Counted from the stretch's first letter, positions 139 through 35,484 are shown. The stretch: 37,219 nucleotides of DNA from a virus (IMGVR_UViG_3300025840_000095:1-37219); one strand, 5' to 3'. The notes: a model not told the origin generated them from the sequence alone. Translations and numbers: made by a program.

Positions 139-148
139 CGGCTGGTGA

Positions 149-187: not shown

Positions 188-216
188 TAGTTTTGCGAGC
201 CAGAAAGGAGAAGAAA

Positions 217-11299: not shown

Positions 11300-11380
11300 T
11301 CACTTCCGGTGCTTGCACCCGCACGGTTTCTTCTTCGGTCGAGGCTTCGGCTTTGGTTTTGGTGCTGGACGCTTCTTCAT
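11300..11380 (-). CDS. 26-residue Lys/Pro repeat peptide
   Basis: ATG 11380 lies behind GGGAGGAG and overlaps the stop of the 1043-residue gene as ATGA. The peptide begins MKKRPAPKPKPKPRPKKK and ends PCGCKHRK; it is almost entirely Lys, Arg and Pro plus two cysteines. It resembles the short KP-rich peptides of other phages, whose function is unknown; binding to DNA or cell-wall polymers is plausible. The strong initiation site and coupling argue that it is translated. Confidence 0.55.
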   Translation of the reverse strand: MKKRPAPKPKPKPRPKKKPCGCKHRK

Positions 11381-14300
11381 TTCTTCTCCTCCCGCAACGC
11401 CCCAAGGATAGGGTCGAGGGCGAGCTTGGCTCGAGGGTAGACGCCTCCGACGAGCGCGTTGGCTCCGAGCAGGGCATCGATGGGCGGGCGGTCTCCGGTC
11501 AGCCCACCGTAGATCTTGCTGACGGCGCTTTGAGTAAAGCCCAGGCCGGGGGCGGTGGTTGCCAGTCGACGAATCGATCCCTGGCCGAGCAGCATCTCAT
11601 GCGCCGCCGCACCTGGGAGACCCGCCGTCGAACCGAAGAACTCGCTAATGGCTTTCTCGCTCAAACGCTCAGAGTCGGCCTCGGAAATCTCACCTTTCAT
11701 CCCCATCCGCACGATCGACGACAAATACGAGAGCGGAAGCTGGTGCCCGGCCATGCGGATTAAGCGGGTGAGGCCCAGGTGCATGAGCGATGCGTCTCCG
11801 GTGCGAGCCAGTACTTTCGGCCCGTCGATAAGCAAAGGCCGGAACACGTCTTTGTGGAACTGAATGCCGGCCTGCACCATGAAGGAGCGGAACTGAAGGG
11901 CAATCGACCCGACCGAGGTCCGCAGCACGTTTGCGATCTCTCCCGGTTGCGTGCGGTAGTGGAACCGACCGACAAGAGTCTGCACGGCGTCGAGCAGATC
12001 TCTCTCGGGGAGTAGATCGATGGTGTCTCCCTCGAAGACGTGCGAGACGCGGCGCTGCCACATATCTCGCAAACGCCTCCACGCCTCTTCGCCTGCAAGC
12101 GTATCGTCAAATATCTCGCTGGCGTACTTCAGCATTGCCGCGTTGGGCTTCGTCCCCTTGCCCGCCTCGCGAGCCAAAGAATGTACCGTGCCAATTGCGG
12201 TGGTCGACGAGATCCGTCGAGCGAACGAGTCAGCCTCCGTCGCCATGTACGTCGGGTGCAGCTTCGACATGGCGTGAGCAAACCCCCGGGTGCCCAGGAC
12301 TTGCTTCTGAAGTCCTCTGTTCTCGGCAAGCTGAAGCAGGACTCCAAGCCCACTCTCCGCAGCGCCCGAAGCATCTGAGACTCGAGCGCCCAGGTAGTCG
12401 GTGTAGGCCGGTAGGAGCTTGCCACCGATCGCCATCGCACTGGGCCCGTCGAGCCCGTAGGCGGTCGCCTTCGCAATCTCAGCGGCCTGAAGCGGAGCGT
12501 TGGCCGTCAACATAGTGTTTTGGAAAAACTGCCGAACAGCCTTCGTGCCGCGCCGTCCCAGTCCGGCTTCGGGCGCAAACAGTTCGCGTGCCACAGTTTG
12601 AATCGCAAGGTGCTCCTGAGTGAGCCCTCGCTCCGCAGTGTGACCGAGCGCCTGCACGATCATTTTGGGCGCAGTGCTTTTGCCGGCGGTGCCGCCACCG
12701 AGCGCGACCTGTTCTACTACGTCGCTGCCGAACGCAGCCGCGTTGGCAATCAGGGCGTCGTCTCGACCGTTGACCGACGCTACGATCTTCTCCAGGTTTG
12801 GCTCGTAGAACTCGTTGGGGAGAAGCGGATTCCCGGCCTCGTCGTAGAGCCTCGACTGCTGCGTGAGCCCCTTCACCCGAGTCGGAGCCCCAGCCATCGC
12901 GGCCTTGAACTGTTTTATTTGGGCCGAGGGCATCCCCTTCTGGAGCAACCAATCGACGTGCCTCTGGTACTCTGGGGTGCCTTCTGCCTTGTCGATCAAC
13001 TCGAGCAGCACTTCTCGGAAGTCCTTGCGGATGATGCTCGGGACGTAGTCTGGCTGTGCGGTGAAATCTACAACTTCACCGGACAGAGTCGTTTGCTTGA
13101 CTCCGGCTGCGCGTTTCAGTTCGGCAACCTCGGACATCATCGCATCGTGATGCAATTTGACCCGGTAGAGTTCCGGGAACTCTGCCCCGACCTCGGCGGG
13201 GGTGCGCCCCATGATCCCGTAACCAGAGTCGATCAGCTTCTTCTCTTGGGTCTGCCGCCACGCTTTCAGAGCCTTTCCTTTGAGCCCCTTGGGTGCGCTG
13301 GATTCCAGAGCCCGATTGAATTGCGGGCCGAAGTAGGTCTGAGGGTAGACGATGTCCATCCTCGAGCGGATCAGGTTGGAACTTAGAAGTTGCCGACCGA
13401 TCATGCGCGATAGTTGGTCGTCCGAGTTCATCAAAACCCTGATTGGCCTGAACAGTTGCGACGGCAGAATATTCTTCGCAAGCTCAAGCCCGTCGAGCGC
13501 AAAGCCCATCCCCTCGCTTGCGCCCGTCATCTGCCCCAGGCCGGGGCCTTCTGGGCCCGCAAGGCTCGGTCCGCGACTTAGCAATTCCTGAATTGCATCG
13601 CGCCGGGCTGCGGTGTCTTCGATGATTCCCCCCATCGACCGGGTCAAGGCTCCGGTAGTCGAGGTTTTCTCGAGCACCTTCCGCGCCGCAGCTTCTCCCT
13701 TCATCATGCTGCCGACGCCTCGCATGAGCTGTCCCGCGCCGCGAGCGACGTAGGGGAACGCCGCGTCCATGATAATATCGGTCGGCGTATGTACGTTGGT
13801 CCTCTGGTATTCGGCCATGTCGGTGTCGTCGCCGAAGATGGCGTCGAAGACGTTGGGCAGATCGTCGTACCAGTTCGCCGTCTCCCGAAATGCAGCGCCG
13901 CCCAGGAGGTTTGCGCCGAGGAACGTCAGCGCAGCCGGGATTGAGGCAGGCGCGGATCCTGCCGCTGCGGTAGCGAGCGCCCCCGTGCCGAGTGCTGCGG
14001 CCAGCCCCGCGCCCAGGCCACCCCAGGTGTTCGGCCCGGCCTTGTCCCCGTACTGAAACGCAACGATCGCGTCGGCAATGTCCGCAGGGACTTCCCGGCT
14101 CTGCAAATAGACCTTGGCGTAGCTTTGGTTCTTCTTGTGCTTTTGCAGTTCGGGCGGGCCTGCAAGCCACGTTTCGACGCCTTGCCGCACCTCCGTCAGC
14201 CGCTCGGGGCCAAAGCCCAGCTTCTTTGTGAGAGCCAGAAATTCGTCGTCTGGCGGTGCTGCTTGTGGTGCGGCCAGTCCTGCCGCTAGCTGCCCAAGCG

Positions 14301-14508
14301 TCGGCAGGGTCTCAGACATCTGCTCAAGCGTCGGCAGTGGCGCAGACATTTGCTCGAGCGCCGGCAGTCCCGCAGAGATCTCTTCAAGCGACGGCAGCCC
14401 CTGGTCAGGTAGCGGTGGCGGCTTCGGCCGTGGACCGACCGCCTGCGGGACCGCTGGCCCAACCGGCTGCGGCAGTAGCGCAGCCAGATTTTGCGGGAGA
14501 GAGACCAT
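11377..14508 (-). CDS. Large internal virion (ejection) protein, 1043 residues
   Basis: The largest gene in the window. The N terminus is Pro-rich with four 10-residue repeats (LPSLEEISAG type), followed by an Ala/Gly-rich hydrophobic segment (about 150-200) and a long mixed helical body. By size, position (after the other virion proteins, before lysis) and composition it corresponds to the large ejection proteins of podoviruses that leave the capsid with the DNA. I see no lytic transglycosylase or other catalytic motif. It is also possible that it carries a phage polyvalent-type domain. It follows a 455- and an 832-residue internal protein, as a three-gene ejection set. Confidence 0.65.
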   Translation of the reverse strand: MVSLPQNLAALLPQPVGPAVPQAVGPRPKPPPLPDQGLPSLEEISAGLPALEQMSAPLPTLEQMSETLPTLGQLAAGLAAPQAAPPDDEFLALTKKLGFGPERLTEVRQGVETWLAGPPELQKHKKNQSYAKVYLQSREVPADIADAIVAFQYGDKAGPNTWGGLGAGLAAALGTGALATAAAGSAPASIPAALTFLGANLLGGAAFRETANWYDDLPNVFDAIFGDDTDMAEYQRTNVHTPTDIIMDAAFPYVARGAGQLMRGVGSMMKGEAAARKVLEKTSTTGALTRSMGGIIEDTAARRDAIQELLSRGPSLAGPEGPGLGQMTGASEGMGFALDGLELAKNILPSQLFRPIRVLMNSDDQLSRMIGRQLLSSNLIRSRMDIVYPQTYFGPQFNRALESSAPKGLKGKALKAWRQTQEKKLIDSGYGIMGRTPAEVGAEFPELYRVKLHHDAMMSEVAELKRAAGVKQTTLSGEVVDFTAQPDYVPSIIRKDFREVLLELIDKAEGTPEYQRHVDWLLQKGMPSAQIKQFKAAMAGAPTRVKGLTQQSRLYDEAGNPLLPNEFYEPNLEKIVASVNGRDDALIANAAAFGSDVVEQVALGGGTAGKSTAPKMIVQALGHTAERGLTQEHLAIQTVARELFAPEAGLGRRGTKAVRQFFQNTMLTANAPLQAAEIAKATAYGLDGPSAMAIGGKLLPAYTDYLGARVSDASGAAESGLGVLLQLAENRGLQKQVLGTRGFAHAMSKLHPTYMATEADSFARRISSTTAIGTVHSLAREAGKGTKPNAAMLKYASEIFDDTLAGEEAWRRLRDMWQRRVSHVFEGDTIDLLPERDLLDAVQTLVGRFHYRTQPGEIANVLRTSVGSIALQFRSFMVQAGIQFHKDVFRPLLIDGPKVLARTGDASLMHLGLTRLIRMAGHQLPLSYLSSIVRMGMKGEISEADSERLSEKAISEFFGSTAGLPGAAAHEMLLGQGSIRRLATTAPGLGFTQSAVSKIYGGLTGDRPPIDALLGANALVGGVYPRAKLALDPILGALREEKK
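14281..14400 (-). repeat. Four 30-base tandem repeats inside the large ejection gene
   Basis: Successive 30-base units (core AAGCGTCGGCAG on the plus strand at 14296, 14326, 14356 and 14386) encode 10-residue units of the form LP(S/A/T)LEQMS. They diverge by a few bases each and could expand or contract by slippage. Confidence 0.75.
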
Positions 14509-14510
14509 AA

Positions 14511-17009
14511 CTAGCGACGGGCGGCGTTCTCAAACTGCATTGCAGGTGACTGCTGGCCGAAGGTGAACGAGGGTGGGGTGTCGAACCCCGAATGCCATGA
14601 TGACTTTGAGCCGGGGTCGATAGTGATGTCTGAGCCAAGTGCTTTTAGCGCCGCATTGGCCGCGCCGGCGAGTTCGGGGGTGACCCCCTCGCCTTTTGCT
14701 TGAGCGTCTAGGATCCGATCGAGGAGCCCCCTCGCGACTAGTTTAGTTTGCTCTTTGCCGGGGGCTGGGCGGTTCACGATTTCGTTAGCAAGCTCCAACT
14801 CGTCAGTTTTTTGTCTACGCTCCGCTAGGCTTCTCATGTTCGCGATGTTCTCCGTCTCGGCTTCGAGTTTCGCTGTCTCTGCTGCGGATTTCTCTGCGCC
14901 CATCATAAATTTCAGCATTTCGATCTGCTGCTCGTTCTGGCTGTTTTGCTGGGTTTGCCGGGCTTTGTTTGCCAGACCTTGTTTTGCGAGCAACCCTTGG
15001 ATCAGATTCGGATCGATCCCGTACTGATTGGCCTTGGCGAAGGCGTTCTGGAGCGCGTTCGTGTATTCGTCTGCTTCGGAAACTCCGCTGCCCACATACG
15101 CCTCGTAGGCTTTCGGGAAGTTCTGCTCCAACCAAGAGCCGATCGGCCTCGCCGCACCGCCCTGTCCCACCGCAACGCTTGGCTGCGGCTCAGCCGCGCC
15201 CACTGCGCGGTACAGCATCTGCTCAAACTCAGCCTGCTGTTCGGGCGACATCATCTCCAGAATTGCATTGGCCTTGATCTGAGAATTCCGAACCTCGCCG
15301 GGGATGCGAGCTAGTTGCGCCTGATGGTTCGCTCGCGCCTGGGACAGCGGATGCCCCATAACGTCCTGCAACGGCTGGAGCAGCGTCGAGTCGATAAGGT
15401 TCAGCCCGACCCGGACGGGAAGTCCCAAGACTTCTTTCAGGGCTGACAACGTCGTGTCCAGGTACGGCATGGGTCCGGCAGAGGACTGCGTGTCGATGCC
15501 GTAGGCAGGCGAGTCGTTGTTCTGAGCCTGCTGTACGACGTTACCAAACACGCTTTGGAGCGCACTTGCTTCGCCCTCGCCATGAGAGGACTTCGCCGAT
15601 GGGCCGTCCTCAAACGGGCGATTCATTTCGAGGTCAAACGAACTGTACGGGTCGAGGACTGCGTTGGCGAAATCGCTGACCGTCTTGGTCATCCTCTCCG
15701 GCGCTTCCGGGTCGCGGATCATCGGCAACGAGTCGCCGATAGCTTTGGCCTGCTCCATCGTGCTCGGACTGGGCAACTCAAGGCTCATCGAGAATTTCCC
15801 TAGCGGCGAGTCGGAAGAGACAGAGTCGAGTGCCGGGTTTTCGTTGCGGATCAGAGGCTCGAACATGGCGCGGTTTGTCGGCATCTCCGTCATGGGGGTG
15901 AAGGCCCCCGTCCCGCGCAGTTCGTCCAGCGACGTGCCGCCAACCATGAACGGCCCACTGGAGGTAGACTCAATCGCGTCTAGCAGCGAAGAGATCGGAT
16001 TGAACGAGGGCTTTTGCCCCTGAATCCCGGCTGCGTATTGCGTGAGCGAGGTTGGGTATTGCTGGGGAGGGCGATTGTATGTCCCTGTCAGTTCGCGCAG
16101 GAAGTCGTTTAGATTGTCCTCTCCGGTGCTGATAAAATTGCCAATGTCATCGAAGATGCTGGGCGGTTTTTCTCTACGCTGTTGCGCGATCAACTGACCA
16201 AGCTGAGTAAGGTTGCTTTGTGGCATCGGAGAGTCCTCGTCGAGGAAGGCAGTACTTGAATAACCGACTTCTTCCCCATCGGTGTCTACCCCGAGGTAGT
16301 CGACGAAGCGCAGAAATCTGTTAGTCGAATCTTCTGCCGCCCATTTCGAGTCGGCAAGGTTAGCGACAACTTTGCGAAGGTCGAGGTCGTCCTCGTTGTA
16401 GGCTTTGAGCGTCTTGACAAACTTTTTCTTGATCTTGGCTTTCCCAAGCTGGAAGAACATCGCACTAAAAGCGGCTCGGGCTTCACCCGGGAGGTCATCC
16501 CAATGCTTGCTCAACACCTCCTTTGCTGCGGCAGAAAATGTGGGTAGATCTTCCTCTAGCCACTTTTCTGAAAGCTCCTGCGACACGGGATCGCCCACTT
16601 GCCATTTTCGCGACTTGCCTGTTGCCGGGTCTATCCAGTCAACCTCTTCCCCTTCGGCGTTGAGCGTTGTGCGTGTTTGGCCCTGAAGCAGGTGCCCAAC
16701 GCCTCCAGTGAGTTTTCCTACCGAGTCGTTGTAGGCTTTGTAAACGGGCCGCTCTTTTGTGTAAGTGGCGTGCCGGTATTCCTTGCTGGTGCCACCCTCC
16801 TCCTGGCGCACAATCCGACGGTAGAGGTCTTTCCAGTTTTCCTCCGTCACGCCCGAAGTGTCGAAGATGGCGTAGTCAGGCTCTGCGTAGTCCAAATGGA
16901 AGCGGTCTGGTGCGTACTCGCCGCTTTCGTTCGGCTGCTGGTTCAGCGCCCCCCGCGCAAGCCTACGAGTGGCCGCGCCGAGCTTGAGCATTTTCTTGCT
17001 CTGACCCAC
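14511..17009 (-). CDS. Internal virion protein with an N-terminal lysozyme-like (GH24) domain
   Basis: An 832-residue protein. Residues about 55-240 look like a T4-type lysozyme: RIVRQEEGG with Glu70 or Glu71, AYNDSVGKLTGGVGHLL (92-108), then AAFSAMFFQLGKAKIKKKF and a final SKWAAEDSTNRFLRFVDYLG. The remaining 590 residues are a disordered and helical body (Gln/Ala-rich after 600) ending FENAARR. It would be ejected and cut peptidoglycan locally to open a path for DNA. The start is GTG 17009, overlapping the upstream stop. It is the second of three ejection-type proteins. Confidence 0.75.
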   Translation of the reverse strand: MGQSKKMLKLGAATRRLARGALNQQPNESGEYAPDRFHLDYAEPDYAIFDTSGVTEENWKDLYRRIVRQEEGGTSKEYRHATYTKERPVYKAYNDSVGKLTGGVGHLLQGQTRTTLNAEGEEVDWIDPATGKSRKWQVGDPVSQELSEKWLEEDLPTFSAAAKEVLSKHWDDLPGEARAAFSAMFFQLGKAKIKKKFVKTLKAYNEDDLDLRKVVANLADSKWAAEDSTNRFLRFVDYLGVDTDGEEVGYSSTAFLDEDSPMPQSNLTQLGQLIAQQRREKPPSIFDDIGNFISTGEDNLNDFLRELTGTYNRPPQQYPTSLTQYAAGIQGQKPSFNPISSLLDAIESTSSGPFMVGGTSLDELRGTGAFTPMTEMPTNRAMFEPLIRNENPALDSVSSDSPLGKFSMSLELPSPSTMEQAKAIGDSLPMIRDPEAPERMTKTVSDFANAVLDPYSSFDLEMNRPFEDGPSAKSSHGEGEASALQSVFGNVVQQAQNNDSPAYGIDTQSSAGPMPYLDTTLSALKEVLGLPVRVGLNLIDSTLLQPLQDVMGHPLSQARANHQAQLARIPGEVRNSQIKANAILEMMSPEQQAEFEQMLYRAVGAAEPQPSVAVGQGGAARPIGSWLEQNFPKAYEAYVGSGVSEADEYTNALQNAFAKANQYGIDPNLIQGLLAKQGLANKARQTQQNSQNEQQIEMLKFMMGAEKSAAETAKLEAETENIANMRSLAERRQKTDELELANEIVNRPAPGKEQTKLVARGLLDRILDAQAKGEGVTPELAGAANAALKALGSDITIDPGSKSSWHSGFDTPPSFTFGQQSPAMQFENAARR

Positions 17010-18376
17010 TAGACAAATCTCCGTCGCCCGGGCAGTGAGCTCATAGAGGCTGCGCGACCGTACGGGTCAGTGGGTGTGGGCATGGGTTGCTGCGGCGTGA
17101 GGGCGCGAGTGACCGGCCCTTGGGCCAGAATGCCCGCCCCTTGGACCCCCGTGCGAAACGCGGTGTCTGAGGCGAACTGCCTCATCCCGGCGCGTAGCGC
17201 ATTCTGTTCCAAGGCTTGCTGCGACCCGAACTGCGGCGCGACCGGCGGAGCTCCAGGGGTGAGCGGGTCGGAAGCTGGGCGCGTATTCTGGGCGAGGTCG
17301 CCCAAGAGCGTCGACCCATATCCCGCCGCAGAGCTTGCCAGGCTGCCGACCGCCCCCACCGCCGCTCCCCTCCCGGGGCGTTGCGGATCGGTGATCGCGC
17401 CCATGCCCGCACGGGCCGCAAGCTGCCGAGCCTGATTCCCGAACTCTCCCGACATCGCGTACCGCGCAGTGTCGAGGATCCCTCCGGCTGCTGGCGCAAT
17501 CGACGGGGCGGGCATCGACGGCATGGGGAGCCCACCGGACGCAGCATCGAACGCGCCGCTGTACACGCTTTTGTAGGCACTCTGGTACGGCCCGCGAATC
17601 GGAGCAGACAAGACTCCGTATATGTCCTTGCCGAACGGGACGCTGTCGGCAACTTCCAGCGCAACGTCGTCAAACGCCTTCACTTGGGATACGACGTTCT
17701 CAAAGAGCGACGGTGGCTGCGCAACCGGCTGCGCCGCCGCCATCCCAGTAGCCTGCGCGGTCGCAGACGCGGCTCCTTCCGCTACGGCTGGCGCTCCTCC
17801 GGCGGCCCCTGCTGTAGCGGAAGCCCCCTCGCCACCGAGAAGCCCAGAGAGGGTGCTGGAAAGCTCCTTGGATGCCTCTACTGCTGGGCGATTGATAGTC
17901 TCTGCGAGCCCCCGAGAAACCTTGGCGTAATCTGCAGGGGTCGTGACAAACTCCCCCACCTTCGTGCCGACAGACTCGCCGACTGTGCCGATCAGGTCTG
18001 TCCCGGTCTTTGCGACCTCTTCTCCGACCTCCACGGCCACGTCGCCCGCGGTCGTAGCGGCTTGCTTCGCAACCTCGGCCCCAGCTTGCGCTCCGGCCTT
18101 GCTGGCCTCGACAGCGGCGGACGTTCCGGCAGCCAAGCCCAGTCCGCCCAGAACCGACGAGCCAGCCGCAACCCCCCAGTTGCCACCTTCCGTAGCGGTC
18201 TCGACCAAAGGGCCGACCACCGGAACGCTGTCGATCGTGATATCTTTCAGAAACCCCAGCGGGTCTTCCCAGGGATAGTCGCCCTTCGCCACATTGACGA
18301 GAGTTTTGATCCCTGCCGTTCCGACGGTGCCGACGGCTGCCGCAAGGAGGAATGCGGTGAGCAACTCACTCTCCAT
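17009..18376 (-). CDS. Ala/Gly-rich internal virion protein, 455 residues
   Basis: Starts MESELLTAFLLAAAVGTVG, a hydrophobic N-terminal helix, then long Ala/Val/Gly heptad-like helices (EVAKQAATTAGDVAVEVGEEV), Pro/Gly-rich spacers and a basic end (GRRRFV). The composition, with membrane-active amphipathic helices and low sequence specificity, is that of podovirus ejection proteins such as the gp14/gp7 type. It lies directly upstream of the lysozyme-domain protein. The gene overlaps the GNAT gene by 11 bases. Assignment rests on position and composition. Confidence 0.6.
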   Translation of the reverse strand: MESELLTAFLLAAAVGTVGTAGIKTLVNVAKGDYPWEDPLGFLKDITIDSVPVVGPLVETATEGGNWGVAAGSSVLGGLGLAAGTSAAVEASKAGAQAGAEVAKQAATTAGDVAVEVGEEVAKTGTDLIGTVGESVGTKVGEFVTTPADYAKVSRGLAETINRPAVEASKELSSTLSGLLGGEGASATAGAAGGAPAVAEGAASATAQATGMAAAQPVAQPPSLFENVVSQVKAFDDVALEVADSVPFGKDIYGVLSAPIRGPYQSAYKSVYSGAFDAASGGLPMPSMPAPSIAPAAGGILDTARYAMSGEFGNQARQLAARAGMGAITDPQRPGRGAAVGAVGSLASSAAGYGSTLLGDLAQNTRPASDPLTPGAPPVAPQFGSQQALEQNALRAGMRQFASDTAFRTGVQGAGILAQGPVTRALTPQQPMPTPTDPYGRAASMSSLPGRRRFV

Positions 18377-18818
18377 CGGACCTCCGGTCGCCCAGGTGGC
18401 GTGTCATCTCGAGCCCGGTTACTTCAAACCCGGCCTCGACAAGAAGTTTCATGCTTCCGGTGTTCGCGGTGCTGACCGACGCAAGGACGGTCTCAGCCCC
18501 GAGCGCGGTGAAATAGCGCAGCGCCGCATCGTAGAGCTTTGCTCCGATCCCTTGCCGTTGGTGGTCTGGGTCAACGAAGGTTCCCGCTGCCATGACCCAT
18601 CGGCGGTTGCCCGGGAACGGCACCCAGCAGCAGACCCCGACCACTTCATCTCCAACCGTCGCCAGCAAAAGGTGCTCGTTCTGCGCGATTGCGCCGCACG
18701 CGAGCGCCACGGTCGCTTCCTCGCGCATCTTCTGGTCGGCAGGCATGAGGTCGAAGGCGGATCGAATGAGATCCGTTACCGCTGCCACATCTGCCAAGAC
18801 TGCGGGCCGAATCTCCAT
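18366..18818 (-). CDS. GNAT family N-acetyltransferase
   Basis: A 150-residue protein (MEIRPAVLADVAAVTDLIRSAF...) with the GNAT layout: motif C/D strand LLATVGDEVVGVCCWVP, motif A GTFVDPDHQRQGIGAKLY, which binds acetyl-CoA, and motif B AETVLASVSTANTGSMKLL followed by GFEVTG. It should acetylate a small molecule or protein amine. Its location between structural genes is unusual; the acceptor may be a virion or host protein. ATG 18818 shares a TGATG junction with the upstream gene. Confidence 0.88.
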   Translation of the reverse strand: MEIRPAVLADVAAVTDLIRSAFDLMPADQKMREEATVALACGAIAQNEHLLLATVGDEVVGVCCWVPFPGNRRWVMAAGTFVDPDHQRQGIGAKLYDAALRYFTALGAETVLASVSTANTGSMKLLVEAGFEVTGLEMTRHLGDRRSDGE

Positions 18819-20674
18819 CACGCTGAGTTGTAGATTGGATAGGTCGGCTGAGGCACCGCGCCACCGCCCATCATGTTTCCAAACATCTGAGCACCCATGT
18901 TTAGGCCGGCTTGCGCGAAGGGGCTCGGGCCCGGACTGGCAGGCCGATAACCGCCGCTGGTGGTGCCGGTGCCCATTGTCATCAGGTACTGGAGGGGGAG
19001 CATCGCCATGTTCTGCATATTCTGTTGACGAGCGCGTTCCAGGTCGAAGTCCATGCCAGCGAACATTCCCATCTGATTAAGCTGTTGCTGGCGCTCTGCG
19101 TTGCCAAGACCGTAAAGCTGCATCAACTGATTTGTCGCGTTCTGCCGGCTTGCCATCTCGGCTTGAATTGCGTTTAGCTGGTTTTGCTGTCCGCCCAGGT
19201 GGTAGTTGATCCTCTGACCCATTGCATTTGCAGTCAGGTTTCCGAATTCGTTCAACCCCTGCGCACTTAGGTTGGCTTGGCTCAACGCACCCTGGAGCCC
19301 CTGCCCGGCGGCTTGACCGAGCGCCCCCCGCGTTGCGTCGAAGCTCGCCAACTGAGCCTGTGCGTCCAAGCCCCGACCCGTGTCGGCAAACTGCTGGAGG
19401 GTGCGGTACTTGTCTCGGTTCGCTTGCCCCATGATCTCCTGAGCGAGCGAGCCTTGCAGCATCTGATTTGCGCCAGACCGTCCAAGCCCAGCCATCTCCA
19501 TCTGCGCTTGAAGTTCGGGAGATTGGAGGGCGAGGGTTTTCTGCGCTTCGGCGTTGATGCTGTTGAGCAGGGTCTTCTCGTAGCGGTTGTTTAGCTTGCC
19601 CATGCTTTGGACAAGACCTTCGCCTGCGCGTTCGGTGCCGGAAAGTAAGCTGTCGTTCACGTCGGTGACGTTGTCTGTCAGTTCGTTTCCGACGCCGATG
19701 TACTGGTTGACGACGTTCCCGTCTGTGTCGGGGTCCAGAAAATCTCCGTAAACTAGGTCTATGGCGGTTTGGGCCTCGGTCCCAGTGAACTCGTCGAAAT
19801 TGCCCTGATCGTCCCGGGCAGCGATTTGAGCGCCCTGCCCGTTAATCCGATCCATGAGTCTGGCGTAGGGGTCACTCCCGTAGCCAAACTGCTCGGTAAA
19901 TCCGAGCCCCAGCGCACCCTCGGCGTTTTGTCCCAAAACCTTCTGCCGAGCGATGTCCTGAAGGATTCGATGGTCGGCGGTGTACCCGGGCAGACCGCCA
20001 CGGTTCTGACCATACGGGTCCATCATGGACGCCATCATATTCCTCATCATCGAGAAGGGATCTTCCCCGAAGAGCCCCTCCGCAGCCATGTGAGTTCCTG
20101 AAGGATTGACCCCCAAAATCAAACTCATAAGAAACCGCTGGTTCTGAGCGGTCACGTCCTCGGGGTCGTAATATTGATTGTCGCCCATTACCCCCTTAGC
20201 CTCGGGGTCAAGATCGATAATGGGTGGTCCGCTTAAGTTCTGCGGTTGGGCCGCTGTGGCAGTGGGCGGCAAACCATCAGTACGAGCCAAGTACGGTTGC
20301 GGATCCGCACTATACTGCCCCATCGGTGGACCACCCATCGGCCCCATCGGTCCCATCGGCCCCATCGGTCCCATCGGCGGTCCACCCATCGGACCCATCG
20401 GACCCATCGGCGGTCCACCCATCGGACCCATCGGACCCATCGGACCCATCGGACCCATCGGTCCCATCGGTCCCATCGGCGGTCCGCCCATCGGCCCCAT
20501 TGGCCCCATCGGCGGTCCGCCCATCGGCCCCATCGGTCCCATTGGGGGCCCACCCATCGGCCCCATCGGTCCTGGTCCCATTGGCGGCCCCATCGGCGGC
20601 GCAGCCATCGGCGGTCCCATCGGCCCCTGCGGGCTCATGGGCGGTGCAGCTTGCGGTTGATAGGGAAAAGCCAT
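18818..20674 (-). CDS. Virion-operon protein with a collagen-like GPM repeat N terminus
   Basis: A 618-residue protein. Residues about 15-118 are built of GPM triplets and GGPPM breaks, a collagen-like pattern in which Gly occupies every third position for several stretches. From about 130 it becomes a normal sequence (NQYYDPEDVTAQNQRFL) and ends in a Gln/Ala-rich helical domain (QMEMAGLGRSGANQM, NQLMQLYGLGNAERQQQ) with a Ser/Gly/Pro tail. It lies with two other low-complexity proteins between the tail-tube genes and the ejection genes, so a tail-associated or fibre-linking role fits, but this is inference. No enzyme motif is visible. Confidence 0.7.
   Translation of the reverse strand: MAFPYQPQAAPPMSPQGPMGPPMAAPPMGPPMGPGPMGPMGGPPMGPMGPMGGPPMGPMGPMGGPPMGPMGPMGPMGPMGPMGPMGGPPMGPMGPMGGPPMGPMGPMGPMGPMGGPPMGQYSADPQPYLARTDGLPPTATAAQPQNLSGPPIIDLDPEAKGVMGDNQYYDPEDVTAQNQRFLMSLILGVNPSGTHMAAEGLFGEDPFSMMRNMMASMMDPYGQNRGGLPGYTADHRILQDIARQKVLGQNAEGALGLGFTEQFGYGSDPYARLMDRINGQGAQIAARDDQGNFDEFTGTEAQTAIDLVYGDFLDPDTDGNVVNQYIGVGNELTDNVTDVNDSLLSGTERAGEGLVQSMGKLNNRYEKTLLNSINAEAQKTLALQSPELQAQMEMAGLGRSGANQMLQGSLAQEIMGQANRDKYRTLQQFADTGRGLDAQAQLASFDATRGALGQAAGQGLQGALSQANLSAQGLNEFGNLTANAMGQRINYHLGGQQNQLNAIQAEMASRQNATNQLMQLYGLGNAERQQQLNQMGMFAGMDFDLERARQQNMQNMAMLPLQYLMTMGTGTTSGGYRPASPGPSPFAQAGLNMGAQMFGNMMGGGAVPQPTYPIYNSA
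20318..20640 (-). repeat. Nine-base repeat array encoding collagen-like triplets
   Basis: About 35 copies of CCCATCGGN (plus strand) or CCGATGGGN (coding strand) with occasional GGTCCACCC spacers. The coding strand gives Pro-Met-Gly. The opposite strand also reads as a Pro-Ile-Gly collagen-like frame because the unit is nearly symmetric. Such an array is prone to slippage. Confidence 0.85.
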
Positions 20675-20679
20675 CAGGG

Positions 20680-22218
<1,539 letters not shown>

Positions 22219-22230
22219 TTCTTGTCGCTC

Positions 22231-23109
22231 CTAGTAGTATCCGTAGCCGTAACTCGGGTAGCCGTAGCCGTAGCTCGGGTAGCCGTAGCTCGAATAGCCT
22301 GTCCCATAATAAGTAGACCCATAAGTATTTGCGGGGTAGGGGGTCATCGCCGCGCTCGGGTCGGCAGCCCGCGATTGCGGGGGCTGATAAGGGTCTCCCC
22401 AATTCCCTTGGTCAAGGTAGTAATTCCCATACGTCCCAGGAGCGTAACCGCCATACTCTTGCTGCGTGGGGACACCGTAACCGCTTCCCCACGGGGGAGC
22501 GTAGAGGTGGCTATATCCGAGGTCAGGAGTCCAGTAGTAGGGTAGGTTTGCTGGGTTTGAGAACGGGTCTTGCCCGGCGTAGGGAGACCCCGCCCCAAAC
22601 GGACCGTAATCAGGGGCCGGGCCCGGCGGAGGGTTGGGGTTGGGATCGGGGTCAGGGTCAGGGTCAGGCCCGGGGCCGGGGTCGGGGTCGGGGCCGGGTC
22701 CGGGGTCGGGACCGGGTCCGGGATCGGGCGGCTCGTAATCTTCGTCGCACTCTGGCGGGCGTGGAGAGATCCAAGGTGGCGGGCAATTGGAGGGAGGCTG
22801 GGGATTGGGGGGGTTCCGATAATCTTCGAGCTTCTTTAGCCATTCCCGGCGACGTTCCTTGGCTGCCGCAGCCCGCTCTTCACGATACTCTTTCGACCGC
22901 ATATGCGGTTTTGGGATAATGCGCGGCGTCTCTCGATCGGGCTGACCGTTGGGATAGGGCTCAATCCCCTGCTGCCGCGCTGCGTCCGCGAGTTCCTCAG
23001 GGTCAAGGCCGGCTATCGCTCGCAGTCCTTCCATCGTTTCGGGCGAGTACGGTTCGCGCCCGCCCACGGGGGTGCGTCGTCGAGGTGTCCTCGAATAGGG
23101 GTCATTCAT
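22231..23109 (-). CDS. Low-complexity protein with DPGP linker and Tyr-rich tail
   Basis: A 292-residue protein from ATG 23109 (overlapping the upstream stop as ATGA). Residues about 1-125 are an ordinary charged region (PETMEGLRAIAGLDPEELADAAR; KEYREERAAAAKERRREWLKK). Then comes a run of DPGPGPDPDP units (about 40 residues), then a Tyr/Gly/Pro-rich tail with YGYPSYGYG repeats to the end. The acidic proline linker probably forms an extended rod, and the Tyr-rich tail is reminiscent of adhesive or gel-forming proteins. No homologue recognised. Its position just downstream of the tail-nozzle gene suggests a tail-associated role. Confidence 0.65.
   Translation of the reverse strand: MNDPYSRTPRRRTPVGGREPYSPETMEGLRAIAGLDPEELADAARQQGIEPYPNGQPDRETPRIIPKPHMRSKEYREERAAAAKERRREWLKKLEDYRNPPNPQPPSNCPPPWISPRPPECDEDYEPPDPGPGPDPGPGPDPDPGPGPDPDPDPDPNPNPPPGPAPDYGPFGAGSPYAGQDPFSNPANLPYYWTPDLGYSHLYAPPWGSGYGVPTQQEYGGYAPGTYGNYYLDQGNWGDPYQPPQSRAADPSAAMTPYPANTYGSTYYGTGYSSYGYPSYGYGYPSYGYGYY
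22240..22310 (-). repeat. Tyr-rich YGYPS repeat array
   Basis: Direct repeats of about 30 bases (core CCGTAGCTCGGGTAGCCGTA on the plus strand) encode YGYPSYGYG units at the extreme C terminus of the 292-residue protein. Confidence 0.7.
22620..22735 (-). repeat. DPGP/DPDP repeat array
   Basis: A run of GGGTCGGGGCCGGG-type six- and twelve-base units encodes alternating Asp-Pro and Gly-Pro dipeptides. The strand is G-rich on the plus side and could also form unusual DNA structures. Confidence 0.7.
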
Positions 23110-25154
23110 CGCCAAAACTCCGGCCTGTCGCCCTCACCCTGCGTCACCGACACGTTGATGAAGGCAATTCGAAACGGGGCTTTCGTGTGGCCTGCTGCGG
23201 TTGCTGCTGCGCTCAACGCATTGCGGAAAACGAACTTGTAGGTCATCGCGCTCTTCCGCAGTCCGTTCAGGACGAACTCAAGGATTGGCAACTGCCAGTT
23301 TTCATCGTAGGCATAGGCCAGCATCTCGTTGCCCGTGATCGACACGTCTTGGCTGGCTTGAACATTGGTTGCGTCGTGGTCGCAGTAGATATCGAGAGTA
23401 CCGAGGTGCAGAGTATCGCCCGGTGCGCCCCATACGTTAGTAAACTCGTCACGCCCGGACGGGTTAGAATTGAAGCTGCGCAGCCCCATAACGATCCGGC
23501 GGATCATGGTGCGCCGGTTCGGTGCGCCCAACCGCATCCATGGAGTCTGGACCAGAGCGTCCACGGCGCTTGCGTTGGGGCCAGTGTCGTCTGCGTCCTT
23601 CGCCCCGTCCCGGTCGAGCTTCAACACGGTGCCGTCTTGGATCGGGAAATAGACCTCTTTCTCGGACCCGGGGATATTGCTTCCGCACCAGTTCTGCCGG
23701 TCCTCCCACCACCACGAACCTCTCTGATAGTCGTAGACAAGTTCAACAGTACAAGCACTGTAGGTGCCCTGCTCGTCACCTGTCTGAAGACTTGCGTAGG
23801 CTGGAGTAGAGACTAGTCGATGGCGGTCGCTCGTCAGGTGCCACGCGATGCGCCCCGCTTGCTCGTCGACGATTGGCAAGATGCCCTGGTCGAAATCTTC
23901 ACTCAGGAGAGTTCGCAACGAGGTGCCTATCGGTGCCGGCCCCTGTTCGGTCATCTCCATTGGGCCCTCCCTCGACCAGAAGAAGTGCCGTCCGGCGGCC
24001 TCCGCGACGCTGCCGTAGGAAACGCATCCGACGTTGGTTTTAAGGGACGAGAAGGAGAACGGCGCACTCGGGGACGCACTGGGCCGGCCCAGTTCAATCG
24101 ACCGTTCTCGGTAAACGACCAGACTGTTTCCTAGCGAGTTGAGGCTGGTGATGTGGTTCGTGTGCCCGTCGAATGTCTGATAGTTGCCTACGGAAAATCC
24201 AGTCGACAGTCCTGAGTGCCAAAACCCAAGGTCATTCGGCCAGGAGAACCAAATGGTCTTCTCGCCGTACTCACCATTTGGGTCGTCACCTGTGATCATG
24301 ACACGGTTCTTGTGGACTGCGAGCAGCTTGGGGTTGGTGATCGCGGCCCCGCCGTAAGCAAGGGTATACGCCCAGTTGAAAAGCGGAGTGCCGCTTGAGT
24401 CATCAAGGTCGATAGCAACCGGACTGCTCAAGAGACTGTGCGCCATGACAAGGTAGCGGTGTCCCGCTACGAGATCCGGGCTCGAGCCATGAAGAGAGCC
24501 AGCCGAATGCTCGACGAGCTGTTCGATGATGCCGACGCCGCTTGCGAGGTGATTCGTCGATCCGGTGCCCCGATACAAATCGGCGACATACTGCACCGCT
24601 ACGCCAGTTCCGCCGTTCAGCGTCGTTCGTAGCGACTCGTAGACGCGGCAGCTTTTTGCTCCATTCGCCCCCTCGTAGGGGCGCTCGAGCGTGATGGTAG
24701 TGCCCGAGACCGCCGTGATGGTGTATGCTTCATCCGAGTCGGGCAGAAGAAGAACAAAGTCGCCGACCTTCAAGGTGCTCGTCGAAGTTGCGGTCCGCGA
24801 ACCGTTCGTGAACGAGATCGACTCTGTCACTTGCTCGGCGTAAAGCGGTATAAGCCGGTCAGTTCCAGGTCGATACTGGAAAATGTGATCCGGCGAGCAA
24901 AGAATTACCGAGCTTGGGAGTGACGGATCTTGGATCGCCCACCGCCACGGCACCGATCCCCACCGTTGCCGAGTGCCTGCCGTCTCGCAGGCGTATCCCG
25001 CCCGACTCCACCACTCCCCATCGACTGCTTGCACGTTGTATCCCCCGCGCTGCGGTAGAGGATTGCTCGGCTGGCCTAGAGAGTCAGCGTAACGTGTCCC
25101 GTCGAGTCCACCGAACGGGCCGAGCGATATGATCTGCCCGTCTTGAGACTGCAT
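23106..25154 (-). CDS. Tail nozzle / tail tubular protein B-like (gp12-like)
   Basis: A 682-residue, beta-rich protein. It begins LGPFGGLDGTRYADSLGQPSNPLPQRGGYNV, a typical opening of podovirus nozzle proteins, and includes several blade-like segments (HRYLVMAHSLL, NRVMITGDDPNG, NSLVVYRERSIELGR, GRHFFWSREGPMEMTE) consistent with a beta-propeller core. It follows the gp11-like adaptor gene directly (TAAATG junction), the order found in T7- and P22-like tails. It would form the DNA exit nozzle of the short tail. Assignment is by order and fold impression. Confidence 0.7.
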   Translation of the reverse strand: MQSQDGQIISLGPFGGLDGTRYADSLGQPSNPLPQRGGYNVQAVDGEWWSRAGYACETAGTRQRWGSVPWRWAIQDPSLPSSVILCSPDHIFQYRPGTDRLIPLYAEQVTESISFTNGSRTATSTSTLKVGDFVLLLPDSDEAYTITAVSGTTITLERPYEGANGAKSCRVYESLRTTLNGGTGVAVQYVADLYRGTGSTNHLASGVGIIEQLVEHSAGSLHGSSPDLVAGHRYLVMAHSLLSSPVAIDLDDSSGTPLFNWAYTLAYGGAAITNPKLLAVHKNRVMITGDDPNGEYGEKTIWFSWPNDLGFWHSGLSTGFSVGNYQTFDGHTNHITSLNSLGNSLVVYRERSIELGRPSASPSAPFSFSSLKTNVGCVSYGSVAEAAGRHFFWSREGPMEMTEQGPAPIGTSLRTLLSEDFDQGILPIVDEQAGRIAWHLTSDRHRLVSTPAYASLQTGDEQGTYSACTVELVYDYQRGSWWWEDRQNWCGSNIPGSEKEVYFPIQDGTVLKLDRDGAKDADDTGPNASAVDALVQTPWMRLGAPNRRTMIRRIVMGLRSFNSNPSGRDEFTNVWGAPGDTLHLGTLDIYCDHDATNVQASQDVSITGNEMLAYAYDENWQLPILEFVLNGLRKSAMTYKFVFRNALSAAATAAGHTKAPFRIAFINVSVTQGEGDRPEFWR

Positions 25155-25883
25155 TTACGTCCACCAGGAGAATGGTGCGGTGCGATGGCGGGGGCCTCGC
25201 ACAGTTGCAACGCCGGGCCGACCGGCTGCGGTGCTTGGCACTAGGGTGCGCTCGTTCGGCGCAAGACGCTGGCGGTCGATCTTGATCGCTCGGTCTCGCT
25301 CGTTTGCAAAACTCGAGGACCAATATCCTGAGGCCTGGAGCTCACCGTAATGCAGGAAGCCCCGCGCCGTCGCGCCGAACTCGATCAGGCGAGGGTAGTA
25401 CAGGGTGAAGTCGTTGGTGTCCCCGTCTGCTGAAAGAGCCGCCGGATACTCCCAGACCGAGACCCGAAACGTGTAGGTGCTCGCGTCAGGAACGCTCCGC
25501 ACCCGAAACGAATTGCCAACCCGAGCGAATACTGTCGGTTGCCCTTCGACCTGGGTTTGGAAGTTTTGGTTTAGCACGCGGACCGGGATCTCCGTCAGTT
25601 CGCGAAATTCCTCCGTAGAGGTAGTCCGAAACCGAAGGAAACGACAGTCCTTAAATAGCTCACCGCTGCCCGTGTCAGGGAAGGCGTAGTCCTCCTGCCC
25701 ATCCACCGAGGTGATGTCCTCTTCGTGCTCCATGAACGCCCAGTTGTGGAGTTGTGCCAAGTCTTCGCGGATCAACTCGTTGATGTAATCCGTTACCCTG
25801 GTCTGCTCCGCTGCGCTGGCATCCTCCCGATCGAGGTTTGCCAGCACACGGTCTCTCAACTGAGCGAGCGTCGCCACGATCAC
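25155..25883 (-). CDS. Head-tail adaptor / tail tubular protein A-like (gp11-like)
   Basis: A 242-residue protein starting MIVATLAQLRDRVLANLDREDASAAEQTRVTDYIN. A helical N-terminal part (NELIREDLAQLHNW) is followed by beta strands (QEDYAFPD, CRFLRFRTTST, TFRVSVWEYPAAL), DTNDFTLYYPRLIEFGATARGFL and a C-terminal helix, the order seen in podovirus adaptor proteins that bind the portal. GTG 25883 is the start and overlaps the upstream stop. It precedes the nozzle gene. Confidence 0.75.
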   Translation of the reverse strand: MIVATLAQLRDRVLANLDREDASAAEQTRVTDYINELIREDLAQLHNWAFMEHEEDITSVDGQEDYAFPDTGSGELFKDCRFLRFRTTSTEEFRELTEIPVRVLNQNFQTQVEGQPTVFARVGNSFRVRSVPDASTYTFRVSVWEYPAALSADGDTNDFTLYYPRLIEFGATARGFLHYGELQASGYWSSSFANERDRAIKIDRQRLAPNERTLVPSTAAGRPGVATVRGPRHRTAPFSWWT

Positions 25884-26724: not shown

Positions 26725-27708
26725 TTACGCAACCGAGGTGAGTCGGACGATGCGGTTGTCGGGTTCGGTGACGGCGTTGTAGGCCCACACGATGCTGAAC
26801 CCACCCAGGTAGACCGCGCCGATTGCCATGTCGGTGCCGAGTTCTGCCGGCTGTTCCATGCGGACTTCTTCGCGCAGCGCAACGATCTCGATCACCGGAT
26901 CCTTGCCGAAGATCATGGCCTCGCCCTTATGACCAGCAGGGGTATCGCCAAGAATGTGGTTGTCTTCGACTGTTCGCACCCCGTAGATGCGCCCGACCTC
27001 GCCCGCAAAGATGCGGGCCGGGTCTCCGAATCGCGCCGCTTCCTCAAACTCAGGATCGTCACGATATGCGCGTGCCGCAGACACAGAACAGATCTGCTGG
27101 TAGTTCGCTCCATCGTAGGGAGCGACAGGGGCCGAAGCGGCTCCACCGTAATTGCCTGCTTTAAGCGCGTCGACAATGTTCTTCAGATCGAAGAGTTCGA
27201 TGTCGCGAGTGGATGCCGCGCCCGGGGTGCCGTTTGTCGACCAGGTGGCCGCCGGAGTAGTTGTGTCGCCCGTCGCCGTGTAGACGACGTTGGAGTCCTC
27301 AAACGCCCGGAAGGTCCGGTAGTTGAGGGCCTTGGCGAGGAAATCAGCCAGGGCTTCCTTGTTCTGCTGGTCGAGGTCGATCTCCGAGTAGGTCGTCGCC
27401 TCGAGCGTGTACGGGATCTTGATAGCCGTCTTCTGGCAGATCACTTGCCCCTGGAGCGTCGAGTACCCAGTGCTCGGGATCGGGGCTCTCTCGGGGACGA
27501 TCGCGCCGGTCGAAGGGTCGGCCTGTACGTTGAGTCGCTTGGGGAACAGGAGCGTGTCGGACTGACGCGCCGAAAAGGCGGGCTCAACCCGGGTGAACTG
27601 CCGCCACCTCATCATCGGCTGCCCCAGAGCACGAACCTCTTTGGTCAGCTTCTGGGTAGCAAAATTGCCGATCGACGATGCGACGCTAAAAGTCTGGCCT
27701 CCGGCCAT
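26725..27708 (-). CDS. Major capsid protein, N4-gp56-like HK97 fold
   Basis: A 327-residue protein typical of the N4 gp56-like family: a conserved N-terminal arm (FATQKLTKEVRALGQPMMRWRQF), PIPSTGYSTLQGQVICQKTAIKIPYTLEATTYSE-type strand and spine helix elements, DPARIFAGEVGRIYGVRTVEDNHIL, GEAMIFGKDPVIEI and a closing VYLGGFSIVWAYNAV. It assembles the icosahedral shell on a scaffold encoded just upstream. AGAGGA lies eight bases before the ATG at 27708. Confidence 0.88.
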   Translation of the reverse strand: MAGGQTFSVASSIGNFATQKLTKEVRALGQPMMRWRQFTRVEPAFSARQSDTLLFPKRLNVQADPSTGAIVPERAPIPSTGYSTLQGQVICQKTAIKIPYTLEATTYSEIDLDQQNKEALADFLAKALNYRTFRAFEDSNVVYTATGDTTTPAATWSTNGTPGAASTRDIELFDLKNIVDALKAGNYGGAASAPVAPYDGANYQQICSVSAARAYRDDPEFEEAARFGDPARIFAGEVGRIYGVRTVEDNHILGDTPAGHKGEAMIFGKDPVIEIVALREEVRMEQPAELGTDMAIGAVYLGGFSIVWAYNAVTEPDNRIVRLTSVA

Positions 27709-30874: not shown

Positions 30875-31325
30875 AGTGGTCTCCCCAGACGATGCCGAAG
30901 ACGTGCAGCACGCCGGCTCCGATCGTCGCGTTGCAGCCCAGTTTAAGCACGCGATCTGCGGCCCCCGAGGGGACGCCCTCACCCAACGTCTTCGAGACAT
31001 TGAAGAGCATCCCCTCGGGATCGTTCGCCTGAAATCCTGTCACCGGCGCAATCGGGTCTGAAACCGAATCGTCCCAAAAGCCGAAGACAACCGGGTCAGT
31101 CCCCGCAATGTCGGTGTCCACGATCACCGTCACGTCAAAACCTTTTAGCCGAAACCGCTGCCCTGGATTAGGCGTCCAAGCACTTAATAGGCTAGTGCCA
31201 GTGATCGTCGAAACATCGTGGAAAGGCAGGTATACGTCGTTCGACCGAGCGTTCTCGATCTCGACGAGCCGCTCGAGTTTTGCGTGGATGCGCTCGAGAG
31301 CCTCATTCGTCGGGTCGACGATCAC
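30864..31325 (-). CDS. Beta-sandwich protein with a helical N terminus, unknown role
   Basis: A 153-residue protein from GTG 31325 with AGGGGG about five bases upstream. A charged helix (NEALERIHAKLERLVEIENARS) leads into beta strands (RFRLKGFDVTVIVDTDIAG, VVFGFWDDSV, GAGVLHVFGIVWGDHFVL), a decoration- or adaptor-like layout. It lies between the portal and the tail-fibre-like gene. It could link a fibre to the particle; I do not recognise a family. Confidence 0.55.
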   Translation of the reverse strand: MIVDPTNEALERIHAKLERLVEIENARSNDVYLPFHDVSTITGTSLLSAWTPNPGQRFRLKGFDVTVIVDTDIAGTDPVVFGFWDDSVSDPIAPVTGFQANDPEGMLFNVSKTLGEGVPSGAADRVLKLGCNATIGAGVLHVFGIVWGDHFVL

Positions 31326-33419: not shown

Positions 33420-34052
33420 TTATCTACGAGCCCCGGGACGGTAGGAGCCGAGATAGGCCGAAACTGGCCTGCTTCGATCGTAGATCTCGACCGGCGCAGG
33501 CGTGGCGGGGCTGATTGCAGCAGACACTGTGGGTGCCTGATAAGCGCGAATCTCGTTCTGCACAATATGCCTGACTTGATCAGCCGTGAGAGCCGCCGGC
33601 GCGGGGACTTCCTGCGCGGATTCGACCGGCGGGGAGCTCAGAGCCTCGAGCGGCGGCGCGAGCACCTCCTGAGCGGCGGTTAGCTGCGCGACCATGGCGT
33701 CGCGAGCTTCTGCGAGCTTGCCGGTAAACTCTGCCTCGAGCGCCTGCGCCTGCTGTGCGAGAAGCGCACGCGCCTGCTCCTCGAAGGCACGTTGCTGGTG
33801 CGCGAGGATGTGCTGCACTACCGGGTCGGACAGCGCCGCACCGATCTGCTCTTCCGTCGGCCCTACAGGCGGCGCTTCCGAAACCCGTACTGCGGTCTCT
33901 GGCTCCGTCGTCCGAATAGGATCTGCTGCGGCTCCGCCCCCTTCGTCCGGTAGCTTGATGCGGTTCCTGCTACCCTTTGGCCGGCCCCGTTTTTTCTTGC
34001 CAGGAGTCGGGCCGCTCGCATCCCCGGATGACCCGCCAGGTACCGAAGACAA
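33420..34052 (-). CDS. AT-hook protein between terminase and portal, unknown function
   Basis: About 210 residues if TTG 34052 is used (AAGGA nine bases upstream); other non-ATG starts further up would lie deeper inside the terminase gene, so the N terminus is uncertain. It has KKKRGRPKGSRNR, a classic AT-hook core, a Pro/Ala-rich linker and a long Gln/Ala/Glu helix (HQQRAFEEQARALLAQQAQALEAEF). The first 190 bases overlap the terminase 3' end in another frame. The position suggests a role in packaging or a small-terminase-like DNA-binding function; this is inference. Confidence 0.5.
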   Translation of the reverse strand: MSSVPGGSSGDASGPTPGKKKRGRPKGSRNRIKLPDEGGGAAADPIRTTEPETAVRVSEAPPVGPTEEQIGAALSDPVVQHILAHQQRAFEEQARALLAQQAQALEAEFTGKLAEARDAMVAQLTAAQEVLAPPLEALSSPPVESAQEVPAPAALTADQVRHIVQNEIRAYQAPTVSAAISPATPAPVEIYDRSRPVSAYLGSYRPGARR

Positions 34053-35449: not shown

Positions 35450-35456
35450 TATTGGG

Positions 35457-35462
35457 TTTATA
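35457..35462 (-). promoter_or_regulatory. Candidate -10 box for the late operon, leaderless geometry
   Basis: TATAAA on the minus strand lies seven bases upstream of the terminase ATG, which itself lacks a ribosome-binding site. The same spacing is seen for TATAAT before ATG 3242. The -35 region 17 bases up (TTTTCT) is weak, so an activator may be needed. It overlaps the 5' end of the divergent gene. Confidence 0.35.
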
Positions 35463-35484
35463 TTGCGGCTCGGAGGTGCAGAAA

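What the first reader, a model, noticed from the sequence alone, without database searches (positions are those of the whole stretch)
18818..23109. Three consecutive low-complexity proteins in the virion operon
A collagen-like (GPM)n protein, a GYGM/GMGG protein and a DPGP plus YGYPS protein are encoded one after another between the tail nozzle and the ejection proteins. Each joins an ordinary helical domain to a repeat domain. Collagen-like repeats occur in phage tail fibres, but Tyr/Gly/Met and Tyr/Pro-rich tails like these resemble silk-like, adhesive or phase-separating proteins. The set could form a flexible tail appendage or a condensate used in assembly or adhesion. I know of no described phage system with this trio.
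Basis: partly seen in the sequence, partly recalled or inferred. Interest (0 to 1): 0.75.

Follow-up and report, generated by a model that had tools for sequence, protein, structure and literature searches.

The report
Repeat-rich proteins among phage ejection genes
A short-tailed phage known only from metagenomes makes three proteins built largely of Gly/Pro/Met/Tyr repeats, encoded just after its tail nozzle; related phages keep them, and they are most likely flexible proteins carried in the virion to help deliver DNA into the host rather than a collagen fibre.

Summary
Three closely spaced genes (C 22231-23109, B 20680-22218, A 18818-20674, minus strand) encode proteins with repeat stretches far below shuffled complexity. 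The trio recurs in other IMG/VR contigs, with purifying selection on A and on C's Tyr-rich tail. A's helical domain and the order 'nozzle, low-complexity ORFs, A, GNAT' persist in phages with 35% adaptor identity. 'Helical domain plus repeat' fits A, half-fits B and fails for C. 'Collagen-like' fails: the Gly-X-Y register breaks after at most 7 triplets (4 in a relative). Best explanation: A is an ejection (pilot) protein with a disordered repeat arm, and B and C are disordered partners in the same virion module. Support is positional and comparative: equivalents of A in two related phages match PHROG 4287, the family of SU10 gp21 and gp22, which are experimentally ejected. Direct homology of A to that family is only suggestive; virion location is untested. 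A tail-tip role for B and C remains open; condensate formation is not excluded. New variant of a known kind, moderately interesting.

The parts
22231..23109 (-). Gene C, 292 aa: DPGP repeats plus Tyr-rich YGYPS tail; immediately follows (overlaps by 4 bp) the nozzle gene
   Evidence: ORF and translation; orthologues in L004, L005, L006
22615..22809 (-). C residues 101-165, (DP/GP)n region; a CPPPWISPRPPECD motif lies at its start, duplicated in L005
   Evidence: dN/dS 0.20
22234..22614 (-). C residues 166-292, Tyr/Gly/Pro-rich tail, the most conserved part of C (91% aa identity, dN/dS 0.10)
20680..22218 (-). Gene B, 512 aa, mostly disordered, GYGM/GMGG C-terminal repeats
   Evidence: AlphaFold2 412 of 512 residues below pLDDT 50
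21490..21738 (-). B residues 161-243, predicted helical hairpin (pLDDT 80-95 in most blocks); the first helix is absent in L005
21289..21432 (-). B residues ~263-310, small repeated module (one copy here, two in L005); sub-threshold similarity of one L005 copy to the lambda integrase Arm DNA-binding domain
20683..21027 (-). B residues 398-512, GYGM/GMGG/NPYGM repeat tail; length differs by one 5-residue NPYGM unit between the window and near-identical L004
18818..20674 (-). Gene A, 618 aa: N-terminal (GPM)n/GGPPM array plus Gln/Ala-rich helical C-terminal domain; proposed ejection protein
20309..20674 (-). A residues 1-122, GPM and GGPPM units; longest unbroken Gly-X-Y run 7 triplets (4 in L005)
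19235..19657 (-). A residues 340-480, core of the conserved helical domain (AGxGxSGAxQ motif), shared with distant relatives L025 and L026
   Evidence: blastp 2e-11 and 6e-14; alignments
18366..18821 (-). GNAT acetyltransferase gene directly after A; syntenic in L025 and L026
   Evidence: PF00583 7.1e-15
17009..18376 (-). 455-aa Gly/Ala-rich protein with hydrophobic N-terminus; candidate ejection protein
   Evidence: position; no family hit
14511..17009 (-). 832-aa protein with N-terminal phage lysozyme domain; candidate ejection protein that opens peptidoglycan
   Evidence: PF00959 7.3e-05, above the curated cut-off; phrog_7 endolysin 2.2e-4
11377..14508 (-). 1043-aa protein, candidate large ejection protein; weak homologue at the same end of the operon in L028
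   Evidence: blastp 1.3e-07 over residues 765-989
23106..25154 (-). Tail nozzle / head-closure protein
   Evidence: phrog_3287 1.1e-16; homologues in L025, L026, L020
25155..25883 (-). Head-tail adaptor
   Evidence: PF24175 SU10_adaptor 4.9e-21

Best explanation
The trio is the first part of the ejection (pilot) protein module of a short-tailed phage. A is an ejection protein: a Gln/Ala-rich helical domain carries a disordered Gly/Pro/Met arm. B and C are mostly disordered Gly/Tyr/Met/Pro-rich proteins made from the same operon and probably incorporated with A near the portal. On infection they would leave through the nozzle as unfolded chains, ahead of or with the Gly/Ala-rich 455-aa protein, the lysozyme-bearing 832-aa protein and the 1043-aa protein, and help make the channel across the envelope. 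Extended low-complexity sequence suits passage through a channel about 3.5 nm wide. Shown here: open and conserved reading frames, purifying selection on A and the C tail, operon position, and the match of positional equivalents of A to an experimentally ejected family. Inferred: presence in the virion, location inside the head, ejection, and any direct role of the repeats.
For: Position: adaptor (PF24175), nozzle, C, B, A, GNAT, 455 aa, lysozyme protein, 1043 aa. Conservation: the trio is in L004 (A and C 100%, B 99%) and L005 (A 80%); C and the start of B are in L006, whose contig ends within B. Selection: dN/dS 0.10 on the C Tyr-rich tail, 0.27 on the A helical domain and 0.13 on its core. 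Distant relatives: in L025 and L026 (adaptor 35% identity) the region after the nozzle also holds Gly/Tyr/Met/Gln-rich ORFs, then an A homologue (blastp 2e-11, 6e-14), then GNAT. Positional equivalents of A in L014 and L017 match PHROG 4287 'DNA ejection protein' at 2.8e-14 and 4.6e-20 (the L017 match lies in its C-terminal part); [quoted passage not shown] These two SU10 proteins have the lowest overall entropy of the 12 SU10 tail and ejection proteins measured. Profile comparison of the A family with that family aligns the shared AG.GSG-type motif and beats 200 of 200 column-shuffled controls. [quoted passage not shown]
Against: Direct homology of A to PHROG 4287 is not significant by hmmscan, bias-corrected hmmsearch or hhalign (probability 1%); shuffle z-scores are inflated by local composition, since an unrelated control (portal) also scores high. 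The AlphaFold2 model of A is unusable. B and C have no homologues outside the close clade by sequence, and their link to ejection is position and composition only. In SU10 the gene after the nozzle is a tail needle, so this slot can also hold tail proteins. No virion proteomics exists.
Confidence: 0.5

Rival explanations
1. B and C (perhaps with the A repeat arm) are tail-tip proteins: a flexible plug, needle substitute or adhesive appendage attached to the nozzle that makes first contact with the host. A alone belongs to the ejection set.
For: C starts within 4 bp of the nozzle gene's end. In SU10 the gene after the nozzle is the tail needle. In L026 a beta-roll-like fibre gene lies between the nozzle and the low-complexity ORFs. 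Tyr/Gly-rich tails are plausible adhesives (general knowledge).
Against: No fibre, needle, trimerisation or receptor-binding domain is found in B or C. No sign of fast C-terminal diversification in C: its tail is its most conserved part. Low-complexity ORFs also cluster with ejection-type proteins in other podoviruses (L007, L008, L014, SU10).
Confidence: 0.27
2. The (GPM)n region is a true collagen triple helix and A is a trimeric collagen-like tail fibre.
For: Gly at every third residue over short stretches; collagen-like repeats are known in phage tail fibres (PMC3368898).
Against: Longest unbroken Gly-X-Y run is 7 triplets in A and 4 in its relative, broken by GGPPM units, whereas E. coli prophage collagen domains commonly show a single interruption. 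No Pfam collagen or tail-fibre domain. A's other half is homologous to proteins in ejection-module position.
Confidence: 0.04
3. The three proteins phase-separate or gel, concentrating head or ejection components during assembly or filling the nozzle channel as a polymer plug.
For: Tyr/Gly, Gly/Met and Arg-containing disordered sequence of the kind seen in condensate-forming proteins (general knowledge); composition kept while sequence diverges between clades; B is predicted disordered.
Against: No direct evidence; low complexity alone is a poor predictor of condensates; ejection-type proteins with other low-complexity compositions (Gln/Asn/Ser) occupy the same place elsewhere.
Confidence: 0.08
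4. The repeats are replication-slippage products with no function of their own, tolerated at the ends of otherwise ordinary virion proteins.
For: Unit number varies between near-identical genomes (one NPYGM unit in B) and between window and L005; parts of B have dN/dS near 1.
Against: Unit pattern is kept with pS 0.41 and many synonymous differences; Gly codons in the array are mixed (GGA 12, GGT 11, GGG 10, GGC 2); C tail dN/dS 0.10; Gly/Tyr/Met-rich ORFs recur at the same place in distant relatives.
Confidence: 0.11

Closest known systems
SU10 ejection proteins gp21 and gp22 (PHROG 4287, Kuravirus; PMC9509320)
   Same: Same operon region (after adaptor and nozzle, before large late virion proteins), Gln/Ala/Gly-rich proteins of low complexity; positional equivalents of A in L014 and L017 are in PHROG 4287
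   Different: Direct homology of A to them is only suggestive; SU10 has no (GPM)n, GYGM or DPGP/YGYPS proteins, and its own low-complexity bias is Gln/Asn, not Pro/Met/Tyr
T7 core/ejection proteins gp14, gp15, gp16 with small proteins gp6.7 and gp7.3 (PMC11784390)
   Same: Works like: a set of small and large internal proteins, some only partly resolved, leaving through the nozzle; peptidoglycan-hydrolase domain in one large member
   Different: No sequence similarity found by the family searches; T7 gp6.7 and gp7.3 are about 90-100 aa and not repeat-rich in this way (recalled)
P22 ejection proteins gp7, gp16, gp20 (PMC4992974)
   Same: Three internal proteins thought to be partly disordered on exit
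   Different: No sequence relation found
Collagen-like phage tail fibres (E. coli prophage EPcl proteins, PMC3368898)
   Same: Gly/Pro-rich triplets
   Different: Register interrupted every 2-7 triplets; no trimerisation or tail-fibre domains
Clade of L025/L026 (IMG/VR 3300016649_000233, 3300032282_003758)
   Same: Same gene order with Gly/Tyr/Met/Gln-rich ORFs between nozzle and the A homologue
   Different: Different repeat units; a shared FxNGNPYYNxxGxLRxR motif occurs in their low-complexity proteins but was not found in the window

Membership tests
Podovirus ejection (pilot) proteins, PHROG 4287 type | Significant profile match to PHROG 4287 | tested here: not met
   A gives no PHROG match; hmmsearch and hhalign with a 13-member family profile not significant, although the hhalign score beats 200 of 200 column-shuffled profiles
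Podovirus ejection (pilot) proteins, PHROG 4287 type | Encoded in the module after adaptor and nozzle with other ejection genes including a peptidoglycan hydrolase | tested here: met
   adaptor PF24175 and phage lysozyme PF00959, nozzle phrog_3287, synteny
Podovirus ejection (pilot) proteins, PHROG 4287 type | Present in full virions and lost after genome release | not testable with these tools
   needs virion proteomics; phage known only as metagenome contigs
Podovirus ejection (pilot) proteins, PHROG 4287 type | Predominantly alpha-helical fold | tested here: inconclusive
   A modelled all-helical but with mean pLDDT 33
Collagen-like proteins | Long, nearly uninterrupted (Gly-X-Y)n | tested here: not met
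   longest run 7 triplets in A, 4 in L005; compare the single interruption usual in E. coli prophage collagens
Collagen-like proteins | Match to Pfam collagen repeat or phage fibre domains | tested here: not met
   no Pfam hit for A, B or C
Collagen-like proteins | Triple-helix formation | not testable with these tools
   needs circular dichroism on the purified region
Condensate-forming low-complexity proteins | Disordered sequence of biased composition | tested here: met
   entropy far below shuffles; B 412 of 512 residues below pLDDT 50, on a two-sequence alignment
Condensate-forming low-complexity proteins | Phase separation or gelation | not testable with these tools
   biochemical assay needed

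The most novel reading that the evidence does not exclude
The three Gly/Tyr/Met/Pro-rich chains form a polymer-like filling or gel in the portal and nozzle channel (or around the portal in the procapsid) that recruits the other ejection proteins through aromatic and Gly/Met contacts and is extruded first into the host envelope: a use of self-associating low-complexity protein not described in phage virions in the papers I found.
Probability: 0.07. Interest if true: 0.8.

Novelty: new variant of a known kind. Interest (0 to 1): 0.42.

Why it matters
Ejection proteins are poorly conserved and often unresolved in cryo-EM. If this set is confirmed, it shows that part of the module can be made of simple repeats kept under selection, with composition conserved rather than sequence. 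That would help recognise ejection genes in the many phages where no homology is found, and gives a simple system to ask why proteins that must pass a narrow channel are low in complexity.

Tried and rejected
Collagen fibre: rejected by register and domain tests. Fold route: the AlphaFold2 model of A had mean pLDDT 33, so no fold search was run on it; B gave only a short helical hairpin. PDB sequence search with the A family: no hit. Phage database tblastn with A, the L026 homologue, nozzle, the 667-aa protein (taken for the portal at the time) and the true portal: no hits; only the capsid gave distant relatives. A search of bacterial genomes with the adaptor alignment gave one weak 26-residue match only. 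Shuffle-based score test of A against the SU10 ejection family: not decisive because composition clusters inflate it. DNA-binding reading of the B module (lambda integrase arm domain): sub-threshold, one L005 copy only. Literature searches found no described phage trio of this kind, and nothing on condensates in phage virions among the few papers returned.

Full report
What is there. The window is a 37,219-base virus record with an integrase gene. Its minus-strand late operon runs terminase (33863-35491, phrog_2), portal (31335-33419, phrog_332), a 667-aa protein, capsid (26725-27708), adaptor (25155-25883, PF24175 SU10_adaptor), nozzle (23106-25154, phrog_3287), then C, B, A, a GNAT acetyltransferase, a 455-aa Gly/Ala-rich protein, an 832-aa protein with a phage lysozyme domain and a 1043-aa protein. 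C, B and A are closely spaced (gaps of 12 and 5 bp), as expected for one operon.

Is it more than chance? Yes. The lowest-entropy 40-residue stretch of A, B and C is 1.56, 1.57 and 1.73 bits. Shuffling each protein 200 times never went below 2.49. Twelve of the other 15 window proteins tested sit at 3.0 bits or more; the portal (2.26), e455 (2.55) and e1043 (2.52) also have biased stretches.

Is it conserved? Yes. Other IMG/VR contigs carry it: L004 (A and C 100%, B 99%), L005 (A 80%, B 42% by local alignment with many indels, C 88% in its tail) and L006, whose contig ends within B. Even near-identical genomes differ by one 5-residue unit in B. Between window and L005, dN/dS is 0.10 in the Tyr-rich tail of C, 0.20 in its DPGP part, 0.27 in the helical domain of A and 0.13 in its core. 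For the GPM array it is 0.04, but this is biased low because the alignment itself maximises amino-acid identity. Parts of B show ratios near 1 with few synonymous changes, so B is the least constrained. Mixed glycine codons in the array argue against a fresh slippage product.

What part is conserved? In A both the repeat pattern and the helical domain. In C the Tyr-rich tail, not the N-terminus. In B the N-terminal 40 residues, the second predicted helix, a small repeated module and the start of the Gly/Tyr/Met tail.

Distant relatives. A search with an adaptor alignment found L024-L026 (adaptor 35% identical). In L025 and L026 the order after the nozzle is a small protein, low-complexity ORFs rich in Gly, Tyr, Met, Gln, Asn and Pro (in L026 preceded by a beta-roll-like protein), a homologue of A (blastp 2e-11 and 6e-14), GNAT, and a Gly/Ala-rich protein in the place of the 455-aa one. 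The low-complexity ORFs there are not alignable with B and C but share composition; for example one starts MYGIGGFGGMGGFGGGYGG. In these phages a motif FxNGNPYYNxxGxLRxR recurs in several of the low-complexity proteins.

What A probably is. In two more distant relatives of the operon, the protein at A's position matches PHROG 4287, 'DNA ejection protein' (L014 2.8e-14; L017 4.6e-20, though over its C-terminal part, which also matches fibre families). [quoted passage not shown] These two SU10 proteins have the lowest overall entropy of the 12 SU10 tail and ejection proteins measured. I tried to prove homology of A to that family directly. A 13-member profile aligned best to A at the expected place, AGLGRSGA against AGRxGSG, and scored above all 200 column-shuffled versions of the A profile (24.7 against a maximum of 22.3), but the formal hhalign probability is 1%, bias-corrected hmmsearch finds nothing, and composition-based controls are not clean. 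I therefore treat the relation as likely by position and only suggestive by sequence.

Mechanism. Shown: conserved reading frames, selection on A and C, operon position. Inferred: A, B and C enter the procapsid or tail; disordered arms let them pass the roughly 3.5 nm portal channel as extended chains (the argument made for P22 ejection proteins, PMC4992974); outside, they join the lysozyme protein and the other late proteins to make the envelope channel, as in T7 (PMC11784390). For B and C a tail-tip role is the main rival, since in SU10 the gene directly after the nozzle is the tail needle.

Collagen. The units are GPM and GGPPM. Each GGPPM shifts the triplet register, so the longest unbroken Gly-X-Y run is 7 triplets in A and 4 in L005. 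Known phage collagens are nearly uninterrupted and flanked by fibre domains (PMC3368898). No such domain is present. The collagen label should be dropped.

Verdict. A real, conserved and (for A and C) selected set of low-complexity proteins; A is most likely an ejection protein and B and C its disordered partners. A new variant of a known kind.

Noticed in passing
28997-31000 (minus strand): The 667-aa protein between portal and capsid has a Sec signal-peptide-like stretch (LFFRAIALVVLLSTPAWAG, residues 43-61), also seen in L004, L005 and (different sequence) L020, and a marginal phage depolymerase C-terminal domain match (PF25692, 25.3 bits, cut-off 25). An exported fibre or surface protein inside the late operon would be unusual.
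   Followed up: partly
L026 13688-15964: A 759-aa protein with a signal-like N-terminus and long imperfect Gly/Asn repeats resembling a YadA-head beta-roll lies between nozzle and low-complexity ORFs.
   Followed up: no
L025 13371-16395; L026 16746-17237: A shared motif FxNGNPYYNxxGxLRxR occurs four times across the three low-complexity ORFs of L025 and once in L026: possibly a common incorporation or binding tag.
   Followed up: partly
21289-21432 (minus strand); L005 B: Small module in B, duplicated in L005; one L005 copy is just under the Pfam cut-off for the lambda integrase Arm DNA-binding domain (20.5 vs 22 bits), so B might touch DNA.
   Followed up: partly
22615-22809 (minus strand); L005 C: Motif CPPPWISPRPPEC, with two cysteines, in C, duplicated in L005 as CPPPYISPRPPGC.
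   Followed up: no
18366-18821 (minus strand): A GNAT acetyltransferase is kept near the nozzle/ejection genes in this clade, in L025 and L026 and in some more distant podoviruses (L014 by my reading of the translation; L035 annotated as acyltransferase); role unknown.
   Followed up: no
145-1077 (plus strand): Phosphoadenosine phosphosulfate reductase-like gene (phrog_424, 1.1e-57) at the left end.
   Followed up: no
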